A stretch of DNA of 39,744 nucleotides from a bacterium (GTDB taxonomy: Bacteria; UBA9089; JASEGY01). This document shows positions 3-36,374 of the stretch, one piece after another (within the stretch, counting starts at the first letter, position 1; every line of letters begins with the position of its first letter). The translations under genes and the position numbers were made by a program. The notes under the pieces were generated by a model. It saw only the letters and a list, made by a program, of their open reading frames with translations. It was not told where the DNA came from and did not search any database. The DNA lies in assembly GCA_040753085.1 (NCBI GenBank), contig JBFMHI010000010.1:1-39744 (forward strand), read 5' to 3'.

Positions 3-124
3 TCCGTTCCGTAGACGGACAACCACAAGGGTTGTCCCTACAGCCTAAGGACAGACCCGAATCACGGACACGGCTCACGGATTTTCCGTGTTTCATCTGT
101 GTGCATCTGTGGCTGAACGGTTAC
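3..124 (+). repeat. MITE-A right-end segment, copy a (123-bp direct repeat)
   Basis: Positions 3-125 match 2747-2869 without a mismatch. The segment contains short palindromes (GTAGACGGAC, ACAAGGGTTGT) and ends in GTGGCTGAACGGTTAC, the terminal sequence shared by many intergenic elements in this window. The left end of this copy lies outside the window. It directly follows the 3' end of the GT2 gene. Confidence 0.85.
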
Positions 125-164
125 AAGCCCAGATATCTCCTCATCGTCGTCTGTTATCTGTGGA

Positions 165-4390: not shown

Positions 4391-5401
4391 TTAGATATCT
4401 TGGCCGCATCTTATCCAATGCCCCTCGACTACTTGCCTTAACTTCGGTTTCTCCCTGGCACAGAGATCGAAGACGTAGGGGCAGCGGGGGTGAAAGGAGC
4501 AGCCTGGCGGCAAATGAGCCGGATTAGGCACTACCCCTTCAATAGCCGGCAACCTATCTACCTTTTGACCCAGTCGGGGCATAGATTTCAGCAATCCTAA
4601 GGTATAAGGATGCCTTGGTCTCTCAAATATCTCCAAAACCGGGGCGTATTCGACCACTTTCCCGGCATACATCACCATCACCCGATCAGCCGTCTCGGCT
4701 ATTATTCCCAAATCATGGGTAATCAGAATAATAGCCATGCTTAGTTTTTCTTGAAGACTGCCAAGTAGTTTCAGAATTTGAGCCTGAATGGTCACGTCCA
4801 GGGCTGTCGTCGGCTCATCAGCAATGAGCAGGGAGGGGTGCGAAGATAGGGCCATGGCTATCATCACCCGCTGACACATCCCGCCGCTTAGTTGATGAGG
4901 ATAATCCTTTATTCGCTCTTCCGGTAAAGGGATACCCACCAGCTTTAGCATCTCGATGGCCTTTTCGTAGGCCTGGCCTTTAGAAAGCCCCTCGTGAAGC
5001 CTGATGGCTTCAGATATCTGATGGCCCACAGTAAAGACAGGATTAAGGGAAGCCACCGGTTCCTGAAAGATCATAGCTATTTCTTTTCCCCTGATCTTTC
5101 GTATCTCCGATTCTGAGAGGCAAAGCAGATCCTGACCTTTAAAGTAGATTTTCCCTTTTTCAATCCGGCCAGGAGGGTTGGGAATAAGCCTCATAATGGA
5201 AAGGGAGGTTACACTCTTACCACAGCCTGACTCGCCCACAATCCCCAGGGTCTCGCCCTGGTTCACGGTAAAGCTGACCCCATCGACCGCCCTGACCAGG
5301 CCTTCGTCTAAATGAAAATAGGTGGTTAGGTCTTCTACCTTCAGGAGAGTGGATGGCTCACCCACTTTGTGGGTACCCGGGATGGCGGATTGGTCGCTCA
5401 T
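4391..5401 (-). CDS. Peptide ABC transporter ATP-binding protein (OppD/DppD type)
   Basis: An ATPase of the oligopeptide/dipeptide/nickel importer class, acting at the inner membrane. Walker A GESGCGKS is at residues 56-63, followed by Q-loop [10 protein letters not shown], signature LSGGMCQRV, Walker [13 protein letters not shown] and the H-loop ITHD. The C-terminus carries the family's Cys-containing tail ([18 protein letters not shown]). The usual partners (OppF, permeases, binding protein) are not adjacent, so the transporter is incomplete here. The N-terminus is odd: residues 4-17 ([14 protein letters not shown]) come from a 42-bp repeat also found in mfd and tssBC, so the native protein probably began near LLKVEDL. 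The gene starts 2 bp after the stop of the upstream membrane-protein gene. Confidence 0.9.
5351..5392 (-). repeat. In-frame palindromic coding element, copy 1 (in oppD)
   Basis: A 42-bp unit read as [14 protein letters not shown]. The core is CACCCAC-(A/G)AA-GTGGGTG. It matches the units at 11469-11510 and 35550-35591 in sequence, orientation and reading frame; it differs from the tssBC copy at 5 of 42 positions. It lies within the first 17 codons. Confidence 0.85.
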
Positions 5402-7016: not shown

Positions 7017-7193
7017 GTAACTATTCAGCCACAAAGCCACGAAGAGAATAATGGAATAGCCCACGGATGACCCAGATTTTGGCGGATTCTCACGGATTTT
7101 TTTAATAAATTTTTATCCGTGTCAATCCGTTTCATCCGTGCAATCCGTGTGCTATCATTTGTAATCTTTGTGCCTTAGTGGCTGAATAGTTAC
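7017..7193. mobile_element. MITE-A copy c, 177 bp
   Basis: Perfect 16-bp terminal inverted repeats: GTAACTATTCAGCCAC at 7017-7032 and GTGGCTGAATAGTTAC at 7178-7193. The interior has repeated CACGGAT/ATCCGTG words (for example TCAATCCGTTTCATCCGTG). No target duplication visible. The rest of the gene-free stretch, 7194-7338, contains a weak inverted repeat with CGAAGTTA/TAACTTCG arms and nothing coding. Confidence 0.8.
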
Positions 7194-7326
7194 GACTTTT
7201 CTTTACATAGATGCTTTTTGCAATGGAGCGAAGTTAACTAAACCCTTCGTCTGCCTGGGCATACCCGCACTCAGACAGGGGAAATTGCCTCCCCTAACTT
7301 CGTGAATACAAACAGGTAGGCGACAT

Positions 7327-9002: not shown

Positions 9003-12000
9003 TCAGTGTCTCTGTGTCTCCGTGGTGAGGTGAACGGTTACAGGTAGATAGGCTAAAAGCCGAAGCACCTTTCTAAGCACGGTTATTTCGTCAGGATTAG
9101 TAATGGTCAGCATATCAGGCCGCTTCGGATTTAGTCTAAGGGCATGGGGATATACTTTAAGGACTTCCAAGATCTTAGGGGCCGCCTGTTCCGGGTGGGT
9201 AAACCAAATATTAATGTATCCGTCCTCTTTACCGATTTTTGATACCCCGGCTTCCTTGGCTGAGATCCTGAGCTGCATAACTTCCAGGAGCCTGTTTACT
9301 ACCTCCGGTATCCGTCCGAAACGATCGGTAAGCTCCTCTTTTGTTTCGACTAAATCATCCCTGGTTTTTACCCCGGCAATACGTTTGTAGATGGCAAAAC
9401 GCTGTTTGGGATCAGGGATATATTCATCCGGGATATAGGCATCACCGGGAATGTCTACGGTAGGGAGAGGCGCTTCTTTTTCCACTGGTTCCCCTTTTAG
9501 TTCGGCCACGGCCTGGGCAAGAAGTTGGGAGTAGAGATCAAAACCAACCGCCATCATCTCACCATGCTGCTCCCGGCCTAAAATATTTCCGGACCCTCTG
9601 ATTTCTAAATCCTGCATAGCGATCTTGATCCCTGAGCCTAAGTCAGTGAACTCCCTGAGCGCCGCCAGCCGTTTCCTGGCCGCACCTGAAAGGGTGAGCT
9701 TAGAAGGATAAAAGAGATAGGCATAAGCCTGGTGGCTGGCCCGGCCGACTCGTCCCCGGAGCTGGTAAAGCTGGGCCAAACCGAATCGATGGGCCTGATG
9801 GATAATGATGGTATTTACCGAGGGAATATCCAGGCCAGACTCAATGATAGAAGTGGAAAGGAGAAGGTCGAATTTATGGTGGAGGAAGTCTAACATAACC
9901 CGTTCCAACTCCCGTCCGCGCATTTGACCATGAGCAATAGCCATCCTGGCTTCCGGCACAATATCAGCCAGATGATTTCCAAAGGCGTCAATGGTTTCCA
10001 CCCGGTTATGCACGAAATAGATCTGTCCTCCCCTGTCCATCTCCCTGAGCACGGCTTCACGAACCGTTTCAGGGTTAAAGGGAGCCACATGGGTTTTAAT
10101 GGGGAGCCGATTCAGTGGGGGGGTGTTAATGAGACTTATATCCCTGACCCCCATAAGGGACATATAGAGGGTGCGGGGGATAGGCGTGGCCGTTAAAGTA
10201 AGGCAGTCAACCATTCGTCTCAAGGCCTTCAGCTTTTCCTTGTGGGCCACCCCAAACCGCTGCTCTTCATCCACAATGATCAGACCAATGTCTCGAAATT
10301 GAATATCCTTCTGAAGAAGGCGGTGAGTGCCGATAACAATGTCCAATTCCCCCCGGCGCAGTTTGGCCATAATTTCCGTCTGTTCACCTTTGGTCTTAAA
10401 TCGGGAAAGGACATCGATATTTACCGGATGAGCCTTAAACCTCTCACTAAAGGTAGCAAAATGCTGCTGAGCCAAGATGGTGGTCGGCACAAGCACCGCC
10501 ACCTGTTTGCCGTCCATAATGGCTTTAAAGGCCGCCCTGATGGCTACTTCTGTCTTCCCATAACCTACATCTCCACAGACAAGCCTGTCCATAGAGCGAT
10601 CCTTTTCCATGTCCTGTTTGATCTCTTCAATGGCCCGAAGTTGATCTGGGGTTTCTTCATAGATAAAGCCTGCTTCAAACTCCCTCTGCCAGGGTGTATC
10701 TTTGGTAAAGCTATGACCCGGCAGGCTTGCCCGGGCCGCATAAAGCTCCAGAAGTTCTTTGGCCATATTCTGGATGGAACGCTTCACCCTCAGTTTGAGC
10801 TTATCCCAGGCCCGGCCGCCCAGACGGTAAATAAGGGGCGGATTGTCTTCGCTGCCGATATATTTTTGAACCAGATCTAATTGGTCAAAGGGGACATAAA
10901 GCTTATCTCCCTCAGCATACTCGATGCTCAGAAAGTCCCTTCGGTATCCGGCGGCCACCAGGTTCTCTATCCCTAAGTACCTCCCGATACCATAGTTGAT
11001 ATGGACGCAATAATCTCCTTTCTTGAGTTCAGTTATGCTTTCCAGGGGCGCACTCTCTTCAGAGACGAATCGTCTCTTTCGTCTGGCCTGGGGATAGCCG
11101 AATATTTCGTGCTCGGTAATAAGGGCCAGTTTAATCTCAGGAAAAAGGAAACCAACCCTTAATCGGGCCGTAGCAATAGTTAACCCGGATAACTCCATCT
11201 CTTCCAGAATCTGGCGCAGCCTTTCACCCTGGCCTTCAAAGCCGACCACCGCCACCACTTGATAGCCTTGCTTAGACCAGCCCCTGACCTCTTCAAAGGT
11301 CTGTTTGGCCCCGCTCGGTTTAGTCGTAATGGACTGAACCGCCCAGTCTAACCGTTTCTTCCCATCCAGGTCATCACCTAAGAGAGAGATATGAATAGAG
11401 GGATAGCTAGCTGTCTTTTCCTGAATCTCTTTGAGTCGGCCAATCATCTGCTGCGGCTTGCAGATTTCGGCTTGTGCACCCACTTCGTGGGTACCCGGGA
11501 GGGCGGATGGGTTTTTGACTTCAATCTGGGTTCTGTAGCGCTCCCGCACTTCTGCCTCTACCTTTTTCACCTCTTCCTTGAAGGAGGATGGTTCATCTAC
11601 GATGATAAGTCCTTTCTCGGGAAGATAGTCCAGGATGGTGCCGGCTTCAGGATAAAGCAGAGGAAGGTACTGTTCTAGGCCGGTACCGGAAGCCGGCAGG
11701 CCGAGTTTTTCTACTCGCTCAAGGATGGGCTCAGTCATAATAACCTCCCTAACCGGAAGGATAGTTATCTCTTTAAGATGAGTAGTAGAGCGTTGGGTTT
11801 GAGGATCAAAACAGCGAATTTCTTCAATACAATCACCAAAAAAGTCTATTCTGATAGGAAGGTCTTGTCTTTGAGCGGGAAGATACTGAGGGGGGAAGAG
11901 GTCGATGATCCCACCCCGGACACTTATCTCCCCCCTTTGTTCCACCATATCCTGCCTGGTATACCCGGCCTCAATCAGTCCTTTAATCAAATCCTCCCGA

Positions 12001-12437
12001 TCTATCTCCTGGCCTTTGGAGAGATGAAGAGTAGCCTCTATTAAGGATTCGGCCGGGATGGTCTTTTGCATCAGCGCCCTGGGATGGGTGACCACGATGC
12101 CTTTCCTTTTCTCAAGAAGGGCTGTTAAGGCCAAAATCCGTTCGGCAATCAGATCCAAATGGGGGGAAGCTGATTCATACGGCAGAATCTCCCAGTCAGG
12201 ATATAGAAAGGCATTGGGATTAAAGGCAGCAATATCCTCCGCTAAGGCCTCGGCCTCTTCCGAAGTGGGAAGAATGAAGAGACAAGACTGGTCGGTTCCT
12301 AATCTGGCGGCCAGAAAGGCCTTGCCTGAACCGGCTAAGCCCGTGAGACCAATAGGGATATTTGAGGAGAGATCAGTCTGCAGGGCCTTGAACCCGGCTG
12401 ACTTGTCCAGCAAAGACAATAAAGGGTTTAAACTCAT
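9003..12437 (-). CDS. mfd: Transcription-repair coupling factor Mfd
   Basis: 1144 residues, a normal length. It displaces RNA polymerase stalled at DNA lesions and recruits UvrA. The N-terminal UvrB-like module (1-300) is followed by the polymerase-interaction domain (about 480-545: KKGDYCVHINYGIGRYLG). The RecG-type translocase has Walker A GDVGYGKTE, DEEQRFG, TATPIPRTL, ESGLDIPSVN and QLRGRVGR, and a C-terminal TRCF domain follows. Two oddities: residues 310-323 (PSALPGTHEVGAQA) are a 42-bp palindromic insertion shared with oppD and tssBC, and the last 12 residues (VTVHLTTETQRH) are translated from the end of a MITE-A copy. The GAGG ribosome site lies in the arm of a perfect 23-bp hairpin upstream. 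Confidence 0.97.
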   Translation of the reverse strand: MSLNPLLSLLDKSAGFKALQTDLSSNIPIGLTGLAGSGKAFLAARLGTDQSCLFILPTSEEAEALAEDIAAFNPNAFLYPDWEILPYESASPHLDLIAERILALTALLEKRKGIVVTHPRALMQKTIPAESLIEATLHLSKGQEIDREDLIKGLIEAGYTRQDMVEQRGEISVRGGIIDLFPPQYLPAQRQDLPIRIDFFGDCIEEIRCFDPQTQRSTTHLKEITILPVREVIMTEPILERVEKLGLPASGTGLEQYLPLLYPEAGTILDYLPEKGLIIVDEPSSFKEEVKKVEAEVRERYRTQIEVKNPSALPGTHEVGAQAEICKPQQMIGRLKEIQEKTASYPSIHISLLGDDLDGKKRLDWAVQSITTKPSGAKQTFEEVRGWSKQGYQVVAVVGFEGQGERLRQILEEMELSGLTIATARLRVGFLFPEIKLALITEHEIFGYPQARRKRRFVSEESAPLESITELKKGDYCVHINYGIGRYLGIENLVAAGYRRDFLSIEYAEGDKLYVPFDQLDLVQKYIGSEDNPPLIYRLGGRAWDKLKLRVKRSIQNMAKELLELYAARASLPGHSFTKDTPWQREFEAGFIYEETPDQLRAIEEIKQDMEKDRSMDRLVCGDVGYGKTEVAIRAAFKAIMDGKQVAVLVPTTILAQQHFATFSERFKAHPVNIDVLSRFKTKGEQTEIMAKLRRGELDIVIGTHRLLQKDIQFRDIGLIIVDEEQRFGVAHKEKLKALRRMVDCLTLTATPIPRTLYMSLMGVRDISLINTPPLNRLPIKTHVAPFNPETVREAVLREMDRGGQIYFVHNRVETIDAFGNHLADIVPEARMAIAHGQMRGRELERVMLDFLHHKFDLLLSTSIIESGLDIPSVNTIIIHQAHRFGLAQLYQLRGRVGRASHQAYAYLFYPSKLTLSGAARKRLAALREFTDLGSGIKIAMQDLEIRGSGNILGREQHGEMMAVGFDLYSQLLAQAVAELKGEPVEKEAPLPTVDIPGDAYIPDEYIPDPKQRFAIYKRIAGVKTRDDLVETKEELTDRFGRIPEVVNRLLEVMQLRISAKEAGVSKIGKEDGYINIWFTHPEQAAPKILEVLKVYPHALRLNPKRPDMLTITNPDEITVLRKVLRLLAYLPVTVHLTTETQRH
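11469..11510 (-). repeat. In-frame palindromic coding element, copy 2 (in mfd)
   Basis: A 42-bp unit read as PSALPGTHEVGAQA, in the same frame and orientation as the copies in oppD and tssBC. The last 6 bp have diverged most. It falls between the UvrB-like module and the polymerase-interaction domain, a region expected to tolerate loop insertions. Confidence 0.85.
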
Positions 12438-12444
12438 TTTAACA

Positions 12445-12491
12445 ATCCTCGATACTCGATGCTCGAGCCTCGAGCATCGAGTATCGAGGAT
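12445..12491. repeat. Perfect 23-bp inverted repeat upstream of mfd
   Basis: The arms at 12445-12467 and 12469-12491 are fully complementary around one central base and built from CGATRCTCGAG words; more ATCGAGC copies follow to 12510. The mfd ATG is at 12437, and its likely Shine-Dalgarno GAGG is in the promoter-distal arm. The same word set fills the MITE-A copy at 27951-28077. Confidence 0.85.
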
Positions 12492-12542
12492 CGAGCATCG
12501 AGCATCGAGGCTTGTTTGGTGGCGGCTTCGCCGCGCTAATAT

Positions 12543-14271: not shown

Positions 14272-14453
14272 GTAACCGTTCAGCCACCAAGGCACAAAGA
14301 CACAAAGGGGAAAAAGTATGTGTCTTAGAGAGCAGTAGAGCAGTAGAGCAATAGAGCAGCAGTTCTGGAACCTTCGGAAAAGTCTTTAACTACTGCTCTG
14401 CTGCTCTACTGCTCTATTTTTGTGTCTTAGTGTCTTTGTGGCTGAACACTTAC
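14272..14453. mobile_element. MITE-A copy f, 182 bp, AGAGCAGT cargo
   Basis: Ends GTAACCGTTCAGCCACCAAG and GTGGCTGAACACTTAC. The arms continue as AAGACACAAAG/CTTAGTGTCTTTG. The core is a palindrome made of tandem AGAGCAGT-type units on one side and their complement on the other. An inverted, closely similar copy is at 22215-22389. No 8-bp target duplication is visible. Fills the gap between the amidase and the barrel protein. Confidence 0.8.
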
Positions 14454-14460
14454 GAAGAGA

Positions 14461-16836
14461 TTAGTAATTAATTATTATCACATCTACCTGCTTTTTTTCT
14501 CCAGCCTGCAAAATAACATCTGTCTTTTCTACGCCGGCAAATCCCTGGCCTTCGACCTTAAGGCGGTGGTTACCCGGCTCCAGATAGAGAAAACGAAATA
14601 CCCCGTCTTCCCCTGTTTGAAGCATCAGGTAATCATCTACGGTTACCAGGGCATTAGCCACAGGCTCTCCCTTCTTATTAAGCACCTGGCCGATCAGGGA
14701 GGCAGTATCGTGATTAGTCAGTCCATAGCTGGCCAGGATACCATTGTAGATAGCATAAGCCTCTTTTCGATTGTAGATCGGGCTGCTCAACCGTGTCTCT
14801 TCTTCCGGGTGGGTGATCAAGGAGGCATGGGTGTAAATAGCCGGACAGGCCGTTTGTACCAGACAATAAGCAGAACTATCCTTATCTCCCTGATCTTCAT
14901 ACCCTAGGGCTTCCACCAGATGTGCCTGCACGGCTTTGGCCAGAGGAACACCTAATTTGGAATTGGGATAGTGGGCGGTGTAGGTGAAATTTAAGGCTGG
15001 ATTAGAGGAATCTCCATGTCCTATGGAAACAAACCGGTCTGCCTCCACGGCATTAGCCAGTTTAACCCGCTCCAGGAGGGGGGTGGTCACATCAAATTCC
15101 CGAGTGAGGAAAACCTTGGCCCCGGCTCTGACCAGATAGTCTTTCAGATACCTGGCTACGACTAAGTTAACATCCGAGGCCCGCATACTGGTAGGTCCAA
15201 TCGCCCCTGATTCTCCTCCGCCAAACTCCGGATCAACCACAAAAACCTGGCCTTTCAAAACACCTCTGCCTACAGGAAGGAGGGGTAGGTCTTGCCTCTT
15301 GCTCTCCTGATTCTTGAGGTCAAGGTCAATCTTAACAGGGATGTAGCCGTTACTACTTACTGAAAATACGTGTCTGTCAGGCGGCACATCAGGCAGGGAA
15401 AAGAAACCATCCCGATTGGCATAGACGATTCTTTCGTCATCTAATACTACCACCGCCCCCTTAACCGGATTATTGTCCAGCCCATCTTGAACAAATCCGC
15501 TTACCAGGGCAAAATTAGTCGGGTAATGGGAGGCAATCTGCCTTTCCGCGGCCAGGTCTTTAAAAGAGGTCCTGACCGAAATGGCCCCTCTATTCTTAGC
15601 GCTCAGATAGGTGATGGCCTCTCCCTTTAGGATAGCGGCCGTGTCTGAGCTTAAGTGGCCTTGGCTAACCTGGAACTGGATGATCGATCCATCCCGAATG
15701 GGATGTCCGTATTTGTCCTTGACTACCGCGATAACCACTATTTGAGTCTGGCCGTCAGGGGGAAGAATGGGGGGATCGAAGGTAAATTCCAGACTTTGCG
15801 GCGGCAGGTCAACGGTGAAAAAGGTTGAGACAGTCCTTAGGGCATTGCCTTTCAGATTTCGGGCATCTATGCTTATCCGATGCTCCCCGTTGGTCAACGG
15901 GTCCGGCGGGATGTAAATAATCTGACCGGCTTCCGGCAGGTAATGATGATTAACTATCTGGCCATCCAGTCTTAACCTGATAGAAGCAGGGTCTATTCCA
16001 GCTCCACCGGGGCCGTCTTTAATGGTGGCTGAAATCCGAGGCATTGCCTCCGTGACTGTTTCATCAGACGGCGTTATTTCGACCACCTCCGGGATACCCT
16101 TAGAGAGATAATCACAGAGTCCCAGGAAATATGCCCCGGCCTCAAGCCTTTGCGCGGCAGCCAATCTGAGTCTCTCCTCCACCCACTTATTGGAAAGATA
16201 AGAGGCCTCACCCAGGAGAGCGGCTCTGGCCGAGCTGTGCCGAAGGACATAGTAATTTCCGGCCAGGATTTTATTTTCCTTAATGCCGAGATTACGCACC
16301 AGGTGGCGATGCACAGTGTGAGCCAGATCAAGGGAGGGGCCTGGATCATCCATCTTGTAATAGGTCTCAATCTGATTCTTCTGCGAGTCGGGCACAATAT
16401 CAGCGTTGTGATGTAAGGAGATAAAGATGTCGGCCTCAGCTTTTTGGGTGATATCTACCCTGGCCTGAAGATCCTCCTTCTGGACCTCAGCCAAATGGGT
16501 GTCAGCGGTTCTGGTTAAAGTCGACTCGGCCCCGGCCTCCTCCAGTAGACCCCAGAGATAAAGCCCGACGCCTAAATTGACTTCTGCTTCTGTTACCCCT
16601 CCTGAGCCAACCGCCCCAGGGAATCGCCCTCCATGCCCCGGATCAATCACAATACGCTTTCCGGCCACGGCAGAACTGTCAATCTTATCCAGGGGCTCGG
16701 TTAGAGAGGCATAAAGCCAGGCCAACTTTGCCGGTTCAGCTTCCAGGGGCAGGATAGGTCTTACCCTGGCACAGCCCAAAAAGGCGGCTGAGAAGCTTAA
16801 CAGCCAAATTAAGACGATAATTTTTCTCAAAGCCAC
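14461..16836 (-). CDS. Lipoprotein N-acetylmuramoyl-L-alanine amidase with a second, degenerate amidase domain
   Basis: 791 residues with a lipoprotein signal ending FLGC (Cys22). Domain 1 (about 60-245) is an Amidase_3 zinc enzyme that cuts peptidoglycan stem peptides: IDPGHGG (H68), TEAEVNL, ISLHHNAD and LLGEASYLSN keep the metal and catalytic residues. Middle parts are Ig-like, with a carboxypeptidase-regulatory-like repeat (about 440-505). A second Amidase_3-like fold (about 525-695) has DPEFGG for DPGHGG, ASDVNL for EAEVNL and SIGHGDSS for SLHHNAD, so it should be inactive. A last carboxypeptidase-regulatory-like domain ends the protein. The GTG start has GGAAGGAGG, which lies inside the end of the upstream regulator gene (TAA abuts GTG). 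Confidence 0.9.
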   Translation of the reverse strand: MALRKIIVLIWLLSFSAAFLGCARVRPILPLEAEPAKLAWLYASLTEPLDKIDSSAVAGKRIVIDPGHGGRFPGAVGSGGVTEAEVNLGVGLYLWGLLEEAGAESTLTRTADTHLAEVQKEDLQARVDITQKAEADIFISLHHNADIVPDSQKNQIETYYKMDDPGPSLDLAHTVHRHLVRNLGIKENKILAGNYYVLRHSSARAALLGEASYLSNKWVEERLRLAAAQRLEAGAYFLGLCDYLSKGIPEVVEITPSDETVTEAMPRISATIKDGPGGAGIDPASIRLRLDGQIVNHHYLPEAGQIIYIPPDPLTNGEHRISIDARNLKGNALRTVSTFFTVDLPPQSLEFTFDPPILPPDGQTQIVVIAVVKDKYGHPIRDGSIIQFQVSQGHLSSDTAAILKGEAITYLSAKNRGAISVRTSFKDLAAERQIASHYPTNFALVSGFVQDGLDNNPVKGAVVVLDDERIVYANRDGFFSLPDVPPDRHVFSVSSNGYIPVKIDLDLKNQESKRQDLPLLPVGRGVLKGQVFVVDPEFGGGESGAIGPTSMRASDVNLVVARYLKDYLVRAGAKVFLTREFDVTTPLLERVKLANAVEADRFVSIGHGDSSNPALNFTYTAHYPNSKLGVPLAKAVQAHLVEALGYEDQGDKDSSAYCLVQTACPAIYTHASLITHPEEETRLSSPIYNRKEAYAIYNGILASYGLTNHDTASLIGQVLNKKGEPVANALVTVDDYLMLQTGEDGVFRFLYLEPGNHRLKVEGQGFAGVEKTDVILQAGEKKQVDVIIINY

Positions 16837-18364: not shown

Positions 18365-18499
18365 TCCCTTTGGTCCTTTTGGTCCTTTAACCCAAAGGGA
18401 CCAAAAGGACCAAAAGGACCAAAAGGACCAAAGGGACCAAAGGGACCAAAAGGACCAAAGGGACCAAAAGGACCAAAAGGACCAAAAGGACCAAAGGGG
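18365..18499. repeat. Tandem 9-bp GGACCAAAA array with inverted partner
   Basis: From about 18393 to 18499 there are roughly twelve tandem 9-bp units of GGACCAAA(A/G), preceded at 18365-18388 by about 2.5 units in reverse complement. The whole can fold as a long hairpin. Flanking words ATAGGCAATGGCC and GGCTATTGG look like the palindromic micro-repeats in other gaps. Its right end overlaps the gatA stop codon (18500-18502). It is too short-period for CRISPR. Confidence 0.85.
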
Positions 18500-19966
18500 C
18501 TATTGGCTAATGCCTATTGGCTTTTTCCGGTGGAAATCCGTCTGTTGTTCATAAGCATAAGCGGCTTGGAGTAATTTCTCTTCACCCAGGGGTGGAGCCA
18601 GCATCTGAAGCCCCACCGGTAAATCTTCGACAAATCCACAGGGAATAGATATAGCTGGTATTCCGGCTAAATTAGCTGAGATGGTAAAAATATCCGAGAG
18701 ATACATCTGGAGTGGATCATCCAGTTTTTCTCCCAATTTAAAGGCTACGGTGGGGGAAGTCGGGGTAATGACCAGATCAAAGCGGTTAAAGACCTCTTCA
18801 AAGTCGGCCTTGATTAAGGTTCTAACCTTTTGCGCCTTCAGATAGTAGGCATCATAATAGCCGCTGGACAGGCAATAGGTGCCCAACATTATCCGCCGCT
18901 TCACTTCTGGGCCAAACCCTTTTTTACGGGTTAAACGATACATATCCGCCAGATTGTTATCTCCCCCGGCCCGATAACCGTATTTAACCCCATCATACCT
19001 GGCCAGATTAGAACTCGCTTCAGCCGTGGCAATCAGGTAGTAAGTGGCTACGGCATAGTCAGTGTGGGGAAGCGAAACCTCCTCTATCTCTGCCCCGAGG
19101 CTTTTAATGACCTGACATGCCTCCTCTATCTTTTCTTTAACCCCTTTCTCTATACCCTCGCCAAAGTATTCCTTGGGCCAAGCCAGTTTCATCCCTGATA
19201 GGTCAGGCATAAGGGCTTTGGTATAATCCGGAACCGGGTAATTCAGAGAGGTGGAATCTTGGGGATCAAAACCGGCTATAACATTCATGGTTAAGGCTGC
19301 ATCGTACACATCTTTAGTAATAGGACCAATTTGATCCAGAGAAGAGGCAAAAGCGACCAGACCATAACGGGAAACCCGGCCATAAGTCGGCTTAAGCCCA
19401 ACCACGCCGCATAAGGCTGAGGGTTGTCTGATAGACCCCCCTGTATCAGAACCCAGGACAATTATGGCCTCATCTGCCGCCACCACCGCGGCTGAGCCAC
19501 CACTGGAACCGCCCGGAATGGCAGAGAGGTCCCACGGATTCTTGGTCGGCCCAAAGAAGGAGGTCTCGGTGGATGAACCCATCGCAAATTCGTCCATATT
19601 GGCCTTACCAATAAAGACTACACCCTCTTGCCTGAGTCGTTCTACCACGGTCGCCTCATAAGGTGGTTTAAAGGGGGCCAGGATATTTGAACCACAAGTG
19701 GTGGGAATTCCGCGAAGACACATGTTATCTTTGATGGCCACAGGCAGGCCGGTCAAAGGTCTGATCTCCTCCCCACACCCTATCCGGTTATCTACTTCCC
19801 GGGCCATGTCCAGGGCCAGATCAAAGTTAGTCTCGATATATCCATTTATCTTTGGCTCTACCTCTTCTATCCTGGAGATGACCGCCCTCGTCACCTCTTC
19901 AGAGGTTACTTCCTTCTTTTGCAGCAACTGATGAATCTCATGGGCAGCAAGTTGATAAAGCTCCAA
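18500..19966 (-). CDS. gatA: Asp-tRNA(Asn)/Glu-tRNA(Gln) amidotransferase subunit A
   Basis: 488 residues, full length. GatA releases ammonia from glutamine for transamidation of mischarged tRNA within the GatCAB complex. The amidase-signature triad is visible: K79 in VAIKDN, S154 in PGGSSGGS and S178 in GSDTGGSIR. The TTG start at 19966 is supported by GGAGTAGG upstream, 13 bp after the rpoD stop, so the two share a transcript. gatB and gatC are not in the window. The C-terminal codons run into the 9-bp repeat array. Confidence 0.95.
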
Positions 19967-21203: not shown

Positions 21204-21352
21204 GTAATTACTCAGCCACAAGGACACGAAAGCACTAAGATTACAGAAGCCATTAGGCAATAGCCAATAGGGCATTTATACCTGCTGCCTATTGCCTATT
21301 GCCTATTGGCTATTTGGCTATTGGCCCAGTGTCTTAGTGGCTGAGTAGTTAC
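21204..21352. mobile_element. MITE-A copy g, 149 bp, CTATTGGC cargo
   Basis: Ends GTAATTACTCAGCCAC and GTGGCTGAGTAGTTAC differ at one position. The arms continue AAGGACACGAAAG. The core is a palindrome of GGCAATAGCC/CTATTGGC words. No target duplication visible. It occupies the whole gap between hisA and rpoD. Confidence 0.8.
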
Positions 21353-22161: not shown

Positions 22162-22436
22162 GTATTATTCCGCCACTGATTGACACGGATTAGCGCGGAT
22201 AAAATAGAATGAGTTGTAAATGTTCAGCCACAAAGACACTAAGACACAAAAATAGAGCAGTAGAGCAGCAGACCAGTAGTTAGAGACTTTTCTGAAAGTT
22301 CCAGAACGGCTGCTCTATGGCTCTACTGCTCTCTAAGACACATACTTTTTCCCCTTTGTGTCTTCGTGCCTTAGTGGCTGAACGGTTACAAAAAAATCAG
22401 TGTTTCATCCGTGTAAATCTGTGGCTGAATAGTTAC
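22162..22436. mobile_element. Older MITE-A copy interrupted by copy h
   Basis: The left arm GTATTATTCCGCCACTGATT and the right arm, which ends ATCTGTGGCTGAATAGTTAC, are imperfect complements, with CACGGATT-type sequence in both. Between them lies the complete copy at 22215-22389. This is best read as one element inserted into an older one. The gene-free stretch 22076-22615 otherwise holds the two divergent promoters. Confidence 0.6.
22215..22389. mobile_element. MITE-A copy h, 175 bp, inverted relative to copy f
   Basis: Ends GTAAATGTTCAGCCAC and GTGGCTGAACGGTTAC. The reverse complement aligns along its length with 14272-14453, sharing AAGGGGAAAAAGTATGTGTC and the AGAGCAGT palindromic core with a handful of differences. 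Nested inside an older element. Confidence 0.8.
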
Positions 22437-22489
22437 AGAGTTTTTTTAAGGCTCTTATGTCTGAATTACAGGCGTGGGGATAATTCTGA

Positions 22490-27950: not shown

Positions 27951-28077
27951 GTAACCGTTCAGTACATGATGCTGGATGCTCGATCCTCGATGCTCGATCT
28001 TCGATGCTGGTAAAGGATCCAGTATCCAGGATCGAGCATCGAGCATCGAGTTTGTGCCTTAGTGGCTGAACGCTTAC
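27951..28077. mobile_element. MITE-A copy k, 127 bp, with 8-bp target duplication
   Basis: Ends GTAACCGTTCAG and CTGAACGCTTAC. The core is a palindrome of GATGCTCGATCCTCG words, as upstream of mfd. AAAAAGAT is duplicated exactly at 27943-27950 and 28078-28085. It sits directly behind the IS3 fragment and upstream of the phenylphosphate synthase-like operon. 28086-28208 shows no clear promoter. Confidence 0.9.
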
Positions 28078-28208
28078 AAAAAGATAAGAATGACTGATTT
28101 AATGAATAGGGGATGGCGACAAAGTAAGGGCGAATAATCATTTGCCCCTACATCTCTCTAAATGATAGGCGATATTGCCAATCCCATTAATAAGGAAGAG
28201 GTTAAAAG

Positions 28209-34388: not shown

Positions 34389-34487
34389 ATTGAAGATATC
34401 TTCTCCATATTTCGGAGGACAGTAGTGAGAGTTGAGAGCTGAGACCTCTCCGTTCTCCACCCTCGGCTCTTAGAAATGAGGCAAAAA

Positions 34488-36374
34488 ATGCCGACTGGTG
34501 ATAGGCATAAATCACGAGTTACTCTCGGGATGTTTGGCGGCAAAGGTCAAATATATTCCATGCCGTTGAAGTTGCTTGTTCTGTCAGAGTTGACTCCCCG
34601 TGACATTCAGACTGGAATATCATCTGACAGGCTTCAGCGGGTTCGGATTAACAAGGATAATTTCAATGAGGTAATGGAACAATTCAACCTTCGAGTTGTT
34701 CTGGAGATACCGAACCGTCTGGCTGATGCCCCCCAAGACCTTCTTATAGAGTTGTCCCTTGAGAATATCAAGTCCTTTCGACCGGAAGCTATTGTGGAGC
34801 AGGTAACGGAGCTAAGGGATTTGTGGCGAATCAGGCAACTACTGGTTGACTTGCGGGAGCGAAAGGTTTCGCGGCGTGAGGTTCAGCAGTGTCTTAGTGA
34901 TTGGAGGGGCAGTTCGGCGCTGCGGGAGCAAATTAAGATGGCTCTGTCAACCTCGCCGGCCGCGCCTCAACCAACTCGAGCGCCTTCTCAACCCTCGAAG
35001 GTTAAACCGCCCACATCTAAGGATGCCCTCGACACACTCTTCGATATGGTCGAGGTACCGGAGACATTAAGTAAGCCCGCCCCATCCCCACGGCCGGTGA
35101 GTTCCACTCTGGGTGAGGTGATCTCCCTCATTGCAGGTAGTCAGCCATCGGAGGAGCCAGTGAATGCCCAAGCAGTGGCGGCGGTAATTGCCGATCTCGA
35201 CGCTACTCTGAGTGCGCCGGTTAATGAGATCCTTCATCATCCTGAGTTTCGTCGATTAGAATCTGCATGGCGAGGGCTGAAATTTCTGGTTGACCGGACC
35301 GACTTTCGGGAGGATATCCAAATCGAAGTCCTCAGCCTTTCCAAGGATTCCTTAAGCCGCACCTTTGATGAATACATCTTTCAACCGGAATACGAGAAAA
35401 TAACTGACGCCTCTGTCTCGGTTATCATCGCCGACTACGAATTTGACAATTCACCGCCGGATATTGATCTGCTTAGAGAACTATCGGAAAAGGTTGAGAG
35501 GCTTCAGACCCCCTTTATCTCTTCCATTGGGCCATCCTTCTTTGTGTCCCCATCCGCCATCCCAGGCACCCACGAAGTGGGTGCGCCATCCGCCATATTT
35601 GAGGGTCCTGAGCACATCAAGTGGAAGGGATTTCGCCGGACTGAATCCTCCCGCTGGCTCGCCTTGGTCTTTAACCGATTTCTATTGCGTCTTCTTTATG
35701 GGGTGGAAGGAAATCGGGTAAAGGTTTACCAGGCCGGCTCGGCCTTCGATTTTCAAGAGGAGACTGAATACCTTTGGGGCAATCCGGTCTGGGCCTTAGC
35801 CAGTCTGCTGACAGCCAGCTTTGCCAGGACAGGCTGGTGCACCCAAATAATCGGTGTCCGTTATGGTGCGATTGAGAATCTGCCGGTCTGGGAATACCCA
35901 CGGCGAAACAGCCACGAAAAGGTGAGTATGCCCCTCGAATTCCTTCTGCCCGAGCAAAAGCAATCAGATCTGGCCGAGAACGGGATCATCGCCCTTACTT
36001 GCCGGGTTAATTCTGATGCAGCCATTGTCTTTTCCGCCCCCACGGTTCATCTGCCTGAGCGTTACGCGGAGGCGGCTGAAAGCCTCAAGAGTGTCCGGCG
36101 GGCGGCCCTTTCATATCAATTGTTCGCGAGTCGGATTACTCACTATGTGGAACGGATTCAAGGTGAGATCATCCCGGGAAATACACCAGAAGGCATAAAG
36201 AGCGATTTGGCGAGGGCGCTAAGCGCCTTTATCGGCAAGCAAGGCGAAGTGGCGGCTGAGATGGTTGAAAGCGAAGAACAGCCTGGCTGCTATGAACTTG
36301 TCCTTTCTATTTTACCAGGACGGGAAATTATGCCGGAAGGGACTGAGCTGGAATTGAGGCTGCGAATCAGGTGA
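34488..36374 (+). CDS. T6SS contractile sheath TssB-TssC fusion
   Basis: 628 residues. Residues 1-150 are TssB/VipA-like (LVLSELTPRD, NFNEVMEQFNLRV, SFRPEAIVEQVTEL). A Pro/Ser-rich linker follows (150-215), then TssC/VipB (HPEFRRLESAWRGLKFLV, LTASFARTGWCTQIIG, GIIALTCRVNSDAAIVFSAP, ALSYQLFASRITHYV). The two sheath proteins are normally separate genes. Residues 355-368 (PSAIPGTHEVGAPS) are the 42-bp palindromic insertion, in the loop before GPEHIKWKGFR. The ATG at 34488 is chosen because GAGG lies 6 nt upstream; an ATG at 34476 lacks one. TssK follows after a decayed hicBA; other T6SS genes are absent here. Confidence 0.85.
   Translation: MPTGDRHKSRVTLGMFGGKGQIYSMPLKLLVLSELTPRDIQTGISSDRLQRVRINKDNFNEVMEQFNLRVVLEIPNRLADAPQDLLIELSLENIKSFRPEAIVEQVTELRDLWRIRQLLVDLRERKVSRREVQQCLSDWRGSSALREQIKMALSTSPAAPQPTRAPSQPSKVKPPTSKDALDTLFDMVEVPETLSKPAPSPRPVSSTLGEVISLIAGSQPSEEPVNAQAVAAVIADLDATLSAPVNEILHHPEFRRLESAWRGLKFLVDRTDFREDIQIEVLSLSKDSLSRTFDEYIFQPEYEKITDASVSVIIADYEFDNSPPDIDLLRELSEKVERLQTPFISSIGPSFFVSPSAIPGTHEVGAPSAIFEGPEHIKWKGFRRTESSRWLALVFNRFLLRLLYGVEGNRVKVYQAGSAFDFQEETEYLWGNPVWALASLLTASFARTGWCTQIIGVRYGAIENLPVWEYPRRNSHEKVSMPLEFLLPEQKQSDLAENGIIALTCRVNSDAAIVFSAPTVHLPERYAEAAESLKSVRRAALSYQLFASRITHYVERIQGEIIPGNTPEGIKSDLARALSAFIGKQGEVAAEMVESEEQPGCYELVLSILPGREIMPEGTELELRLRIR
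35550..35591 (+). repeat. In-frame palindromic coding element, copy 3 (in tssBC)
   Basis: 42 bp = 14 codons, PSAIPGTHEVGAPS, with an 8-bp stem GCACCCAC-GAA-GTGGGTGC. Same frame and orientation as the copies in oppD and mfd. Only this copy adds a second CCATCCGCCAT word at its right side (35586-35596), echoing its left end. Confidence 0.88.

What the first reader, a model, noticed from the sequence alone, without database searches (positions are those of the whole stretch)
35550..35591. A 42-bp palindrome-centred element inserted in frame inside three unrelated genes
The sequence shows directly that oppD (5351-5392), mfd (11469-11510) and tssBC (35550-35591) contain the same 42-bp unit, in sense orientation and the same frame, encoding (P/Q)SA(I/L)PGTHXVGXXX. 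The unit is exactly 14 codons with a stem-loop CACCCAC-NAA-GTGGGTG. Known precedent: Rickettsia palindromic elements, which insert in frame into protein genes. I know of no described family with this peptide. Inference: a selfish coding-compatible element that survives only where the peptide is tolerated in a loop or terminus.
Basis: partly seen in the sequence, partly recalled or inferred. Interest (0 to 1): 0.92.

Follow-up and report, generated by a model that had tools for sequence, protein, structure and literature searches.

The report
Hairpin unit inside gene-borne heptamer repeats
In this unnamed bacterium and its same-genus relative, dozens of genes, many of them housekeeping genes, carry in-frame arrays of a 7-base repeat, and a 22-base hairpin sits inside many of those arrays in the studied genome; it resembles the gene-invading palindromes of Rickettsia but is much smaller and is built from different units.

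Summary
The three copies in oppD, mfd and tssBC are genuine, sense-oriented and in the same frame, and the genome holds about 78 copies. Of these, 71 lie in ORFs of at least 200 aa (91%, against 76% of random positions). Hosts include LeuRS (2 copies), SMC (5), MutS, AcpS and NAD kinase. The "42-bp element" is better described as a 22-bp hairpin core (CGGGTACCCACGAAGTGGGTGC) embedded in heptamer repeats (ATCCGAA/ATCCGCA/ATCCGCC). Core plus heptamers has no stop codon in any of the six frames; hosts use all six, with sense and PGTHEVG-frame bias. In the only other same-genus genome, 31 of 49 orthologous sites carry a heptamer array without the core, 6 carry the core and 12 neither; control positions give 10 of 134 arrays and no core. 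Orthologues checked in other families of the phylum lack the inserts. Both 7 and 22 leave remainder 1 on division by 3, so core and heptamer are interchangeable without a net frame shift (OppD +15 bp). RNase P RNA P12 carries other heptamer arrays in the same way. No Y1 transposase or reverse transcriptase was found. It works like Rickettsia palindromic elements but is not one; spread by copying between arrays is inferred.

The parts
5358..5379 (-). 22-bp hairpin core (CGGGTACCCACAAAGTGGGTGA) in oppD, codons ~8-15
5351..5393 (-). core plus flanking heptamers in oppD ([17 protein letters not shown]); G011 orthologue has heptamers only (MSSQSEIRNPKSEI), 15 bp shorter
4391..5401 (-). host gene oppD (ABC_tran + oligo_HPY); homology to solved OppD/DppD starts after the insert, at residue 17
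11476..11497 (-). 22-bp core in mfd
11469..11511 (-). core plus degenerate heptamers in mfd (NPSALPGTHEVGAQAEICKP); both G011 Mfd homologues have NPQSAIRNP-type heptamers there
9003..12437 (-). host gene mfd; insert lies in the poorly conserved segment between the UvrB-interaction and CarD/RID domains
35563..35584 (+). 22-bp core (CAGGCACCCACGAAGTGGGTGC) in tssBC
35549..35597 (+). core plus ATCCGCC heptamers in tssBC (PSAIPGTHEVGAPSAI), in a loop between conserved FISSIGPSFF and FEGPEHIKW
34476..36374 (+). host gene: fused TssB-TssC (VipA + VipB) T6SS sheath protein

Best explanation
The element is a 22-bp hairpin unit that lives inside 7-bp tandem-repeat arrays (ATCCGMM) carried at tolerated positions (N-termini, loops, linkers) of protein genes in this genus. 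SHOWN: arrays occupy the same gene positions in both genus members; the hairpin is present or absent within those arrays; core plus heptamers is open in all six frames; host proteins keep homology in one frame on both sides. INFERRED: arrays were seeded in genes on the genus lineage, grow and shrink by slippage, and swap units by copying between arrays at different loci (ectopic gene conversion or template switching through the shared heptamers), which carries the hairpin from array to array without a dedicated transposase. Because 7 and 22 both leave remainder 1 modulo 3, one hairpin replaces one heptamer without a net frameshift, and selection keeps arrays whose unit count preserves the frame and whose peptide is tolerated. 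Translation into NPQSAIR / PGTHEVGA-type peptides is inferred from frame maintenance, not measured.
For: 78 copies, 71 in ORFs >=200 aa vs 1138/1500 random positions, Fisher p=0.0014. Immediately flanking 7-mers match GMMATCC within one mismatch in 69/79 (left) and 68/79 (right), vs 0.5% expected; left and right heptamer types agree in 55/79 vs 24.8 by shuffling. Tandem core spacings 22, 29 = 22+7, 36 = 22+14. G011 orthologous sites: 31 heptamers only, 6 core, 12 neither of 49; control positions 10/134 heptamers, 0 core. Clean swaps: OppD +15, HdrA-like +15, NfeD-like +15, MurJ-like +15, WaaF-like -6, NADK +36, AcpS +36. Outgroup LeuRS, MutS and WaaF-like homologues lack the insert. Core and heptamers have no stop in six frames. 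Sense bias 61/74, p=1e-8, and frame-A bias 38/61, p=4e-6. No Y1 transposase or reverse transcriptase in the 97%-complete genome. Heptamer arrays: 248 pattern hits in G000, 745 in G011, reversed control 0.
Against: Only two genomes of the genus are held, both fragmented assemblies. The prediction that orthologous length differences equal 1 mod 7 holds at simple sites but not significantly overall (7 of 33, 4.7 expected), because many sites carry further indels. 12 of 49 sites show no heptamers in the relative. No movement was observed and no donor-recipient tract was traced. The core also occurs in unrelated phyla in different contexts, so its origin may lie outside the heptamers. Other transposase families were not searched.
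Confidence: 0.62

Rival explanations
1. A discrete MITE- or RPE-like element (core plus about two heptamers, 36-43 bp) is mobilised as a unit by a trans-acting transposase or integrase and inserts into genes; flanking heptamers are its ends or target duplications.
For: Flanking heptamers agree left and right; near-identical copies across 52 host ORFs; some sites lack heptamers in the relative, such as AcpS, where the difference is exactly 22+14 bp.
Against: 31 of 49 sites in the relative have heptamers and no core, not predicted by one-step insertion into empty sites; no Y1 transposase or reverse transcriptase; spacing between cores varies by heptamer units.
Confidence: 0.2
2. The core is inserted site-specifically into ATCC^G sites of heptamer arrays by an unidentified enzyme, so that heptamer arrays are homing sites.
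For: Constant junction ATCC|core|G in most copies; strong preference for heptamer sites.
Against: A bare 22-bp insertion would break frame in every gene; net differences such as +15 or -6 require loss of heptamers too.
Confidence: 0.13
3. Coincidental convergent or neutral low-complexity tails: host proteins evolved similar peptides independently.
For: Peptides sit in loops and termini.
Against: Nucleotide-level identity including silent positions, and the same DNA read in all six frames, cannot come from peptide convergence.
Confidence: 0.01
4. Assembly artefact of short-read assemblies (repeat mis-joins inside genes).
For: Both genomes are fragmented assemblies.
Against: The same gene positions carry repeats in two separate assemblies with diverged flanking genes; host proteins stay in frame across inserts.
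Confidence: 0.03

Closest known systems
Rickettsia (and Wolbachia) palindromic elements, RPE/WPE
   Same: Hairpin-forming repeats inserted in frame in many unrelated conserved genes; orthologues carry inserts at the same sites with differing content; RNA genes (RNase P RNA, tmRNA) also hit (PMC2229807, PMC3767692, PMC10969869).
   Different: RPEs are about 100-150 bp with long stems. Here the hairpin unit is 22 bp and sits in 7-bp tandem arrays, all six frames are used, and the organism lies in a small unnamed phylum.
Bacterial heptamer repeats: TAACTGA of marine Beggiatoaceae; STRR heptamers of cyanobacteria
   Same: 7-bp direct-repeat arrays dispersed in a genome, some near start codons and protein ends (PMC4679880, PMC4692102).
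   Different: TAACTGA arrays are mostly intergenic and have stops in the forward frames; the ATCCGMM arrays here are stop-free in all frames and lie inside housekeeping genes, with a hairpin unit interspersed.
REP / BIME palindromes with RAYT (Y1) transposases
   Same: Short (20-40 bp) hairpin repeats in high copy (PMC3733652).
   Different: REPs are extragenic and tied to Y1 RAYT genes; here copies are mainly intragenic and no Y1_Tnp was found.
Bacterial MITEs with ORFs (Correia, ERIC, YPAL/RU-2)
   Same: Small non-autonomous repeats sometimes fused in frame to genes (PMC2229807).
   Different: MITEs are about 100-200 bp with terminal inverted repeats and TA or target-site duplications; not seen here.

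Membership tests
Rickettsia palindromic elements (RPE) | palindromic repeat inserted in frame in unrelated protein genes | tested here: met
Rickettsia palindromic elements (RPE) | length about 100-150 bp with long stem | tested here: not met
   core 22 bp, 8-bp stem; typical core plus flanks about 36-50 bp
Rickettsia palindromic elements (RPE) | sequence similarity to a described RPE family | not tested
   no RPE models at hand
Rickettsia palindromic elements (RPE) | insertion also in structured RNA genes | tested here: inconclusive
   RNase P RNA P12 carries other heptamer arrays, not this core; tmRNA match is 360 nt, about model length
REP/RAYT | Y1 transposase (RAYT) in the genome | tested here: not met
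   PF01797: 0 matches in own genome, positive in 5 control genomes
REP/RAYT | extragenic location | tested here: not met
   71/78 in ORFs >=200 aa
MITE | terminal inverted repeats, target-site duplication, related transposase | tested here: inconclusive
   flanking identical 7-mers are usually part of heptamer arrays, which the relative has without the core; no donor transposase sought beyond Y1
Short tandemly repeated heptamers (STRR / LSSR) | tandem 7-bp units dispersed genome-wide | tested here: met
   248 pattern hits in G000 and 745 in G011, reversed control 0

The most novel reading that the evidence does not exclude
A transposase-free, gene-dwelling repeat system: heptamer arrays act as frame-tolerant landing pads that exchange units across the genome, and a 22-bp hairpin, frame-equivalent to one heptamer, spreads only through them, continually adding and replacing short peptides at fixed exposed sites of essential proteins and, with other heptamers, loops of RNase P RNA.
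Probability: 0.4. Interest if true: 0.85.

Novelty: new variant of a known kind. Interest (0 to 1): 0.72.

Why it matters
In-frame gene invasion by palindromes is best documented in Rickettsiales, and its mechanism is unknown. Here is an RPE-like case in another phylum with much smaller units. Filled, heptamer-only and empty states can be compared at dozens of orthologous sites, so order of events, frame rule and mode of spread become testable. It also shows non-triplet tandem repeats accepted in tRNA synthetases, repair and chromosome-segregation proteins, and a steady source of new protein segments.

Tried and rejected
Y1/RAYT mobilisation: no PF01797 in the genome. Reverse-transcriptase route: no PF00078. 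Viral or plasmid origin: core absent from viral contigs and plasmids; heptamer arrays alone occur in 24 viral-collection stretches. Universal length rule (difference = 1 mod 7): true at simple sites, not significant overall (7/33). TssC, DXR and TatD found no good G011 orthologue in the first set of fetched loci.

Full report
Observation. The three copies are exactly where reported. A 32-mer consensus finds only these three in the window with at most 3 mismatches and never in 100 shuffles. The genome (G000, 3.05 Mb, 250 contigs) has 77 places within 3 mismatches of TCCCGGGTACCCACRAAGTGGGTGCG, none for the reversed pattern.

Anatomy. Aligning the copies shows a 22-bp core, CGGGTACCCACRAAGTGGGTGC, that folds as an 8-bp stem with a 3-nt loop, with 7-bp repeats ATCCGAA, ATCCGCA or ATCCGCC on either side. 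The nearest 7-mer fits GMMATCC within one mismatch in 69/79 copies on the left and 68/79 on the right (0.5% expected), and the heptamer variant agrees across the core in 55/79 against 24.8 by shuffling. Tandem cores lie 22, 29 and 36 bp apart (C64:9457/9479, C64:4185/4214, C6:51705/51741), i.e. 22 + 0, 1 or 2 heptamers.

Genes. 71 of 78 copies lie in ORFs of 200 aa or more, against 1138 of 1500 random positions (p=0.0014). There are 52 distinct host ORFs of 150 aa or more. NCBIfam or Pfam identify LeuRS (two copies in two frames), SMC (five), MutS, AcpS, NAD kinase, a heptosyltransferase-like protein, OppD, Mfd and TssBC; others named from sequence only (not profile-tested) include QueC, AroB, ArgJ, TatD, MurJ, MurB, DXR, an Nth-like endonuclease and an HdrA-like protein. 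Core and heptamers are stop-free in six frames. All six are used (A 38, C 14, B 9, b 7, c 5, a 1), with bias to sense (61/74) and to PGTHEVG (38/61). 15 of 52 hosts have the element within 30 codons of the open-frame start, 3.5 expected. In OppD the insert precedes the start of homology; in LeuRS it falls where Thermus LeuRS has a shorter segment before IPVFTTRPDT; in TssC in a loop between two conserved segments.

Comparison with relatives. Of 19 genomes of the phylum only G000 and the one same-genus genome, G011, have the core. By coordinates G011 matches GenBank JASEGY01, 'bacterium isolate Yes70-08'. For 49 core sites with an aligned G011 orthologue, 31 have a heptamer array but no core, 6 have a core, 12 have neither; positions elsewhere in the same genes give 10 arrays and 0 cores in 134. 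Examples: LeuRS VVD-NPQSAIRNPQSEDPHSAIRN...-IPVFTTR in G011 versus VVD-QPGYPRSGCDIRLPSSE-IPVFTTR in G000; OppD MSSQSEIRNPKSEI versus [18 protein letters not shown]. In other families of the phylum the LeuRS, MutS and WaaF-like sites lack the insert. Heptamer pattern hits number 248 in G000 and 745 in G011, and 26 or fewer in each other genome of the phylum.

Frame rule. 7 and 22 are both 1 modulo 3, so one core replacing one heptamer adds 15 bp. OppD, HdrA-like, MurJ-like and NfeD-like sites differ by exactly +15, the WaaF-like site by -6 (core for four heptamers), NADK and AcpS by +36 (core plus two heptamers). Over all sites the modulo-7 prediction is not significant (7/33) since further indels are common.

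RNA gene. RNase P RNA of G000 is 512 nt, in part because P12 is extended by (AGTAGAC)n facing its complement; G011 has a different heptamer, (AAGTAGG)n, at the same place, and a family-f3 genome a CTACTGA-type array. Position is conserved and the repeat family turns over, as in the protein genes.

Mechanism. Shown: shared array positions, core present or absent within arrays, open frames, host homology on both sides in one frame. Inferred: translation; growth by slippage (heptanucleotides are the commonest long simple repeats in most genomes, as summarised in PMC4679880, citing Mrazek et al. 2007); spread of the core by copying between arrays; selection for frame and tolerated peptide. No Y1 transposase or reverse transcriptase was found. 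The 21-mer core motif also occurs, with other flanks, in Syntrophorhabdus, Tectomicrobia and a few other MAGs, so shared ancestry by transfer or convergence on the same hairpin is open.

Known kinds. Closest in behaviour are Rickettsia palindromic elements, roughly 100-150 bp, in frame in many genes, with inserts at the same sites in orthologues and also in RNase P RNA and tmRNA (PMC2229807, PMC3767692, PMC10969869). Closest in repeat unit are heptamer arrays of Beggiatoaceae and cyanobacteria, mostly intergenic in Beggiatoaceae (PMC4679880, PMC4692102). The combination found here fits neither definition, hence 'new variant of a known kind'. My literature search covered only open-licence PMC papers.

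Noticed in passing
window 34476-36374 (+): TssB (VipA) and TssC (VipB) T6SS sheath subunits are fused in one 632-aa ORF (PF05591 + PF05943).
   Followed up: partly
L247:1501-2012 (-); L251:349-939 (-); L253:1501-2021 (-): RNase P RNA P12 is extended by arrays of heptamers that differ between genomes: AGTAGAC (G000), AAGTAGG (G011), CTACTGA-like (G005).
   Followed up: partly
window 14328-14416 and 22253-22332; 12445-12523 and 27962-28064; 18374-18516: Other short tandem repeats (TAGAGCAG 8-mer, ATCGAGC 7-mer, GGACCAAAA 9-mer), several arranged as inverted pairs, mostly in intergenic DNA.
   Followed up: no
window 85-133, 2829-2877, 7154-7202, 14427-14464, 21329-21352, 22350-22445, 28051-28088: Dispersed, mostly intergenic repeat ending GTGGCTGAACGGTTAC, in both orientations.
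   Followed up: no
L033, L034, L039, L041, L043, L063, L065 (Syntrophorhabdus sp. PtaU1.Bin058); L031, L050, L059, L062, L067 (Tectomicrobia): The same 21-22-bp hairpin occurs in multiple copies in unrelated phyla with different flanks (93-bp tandem repeats in Syntrophorhabdus L033); shared origin or convergence unknown.
   Followed up: partly
L117 and L118 (G011): The relative has two Mfd homologues (open frames of 1129 and 1153 aa), both with heptamer arrays at the window Mfd's insertion site but of different composition.
   Followed up: no
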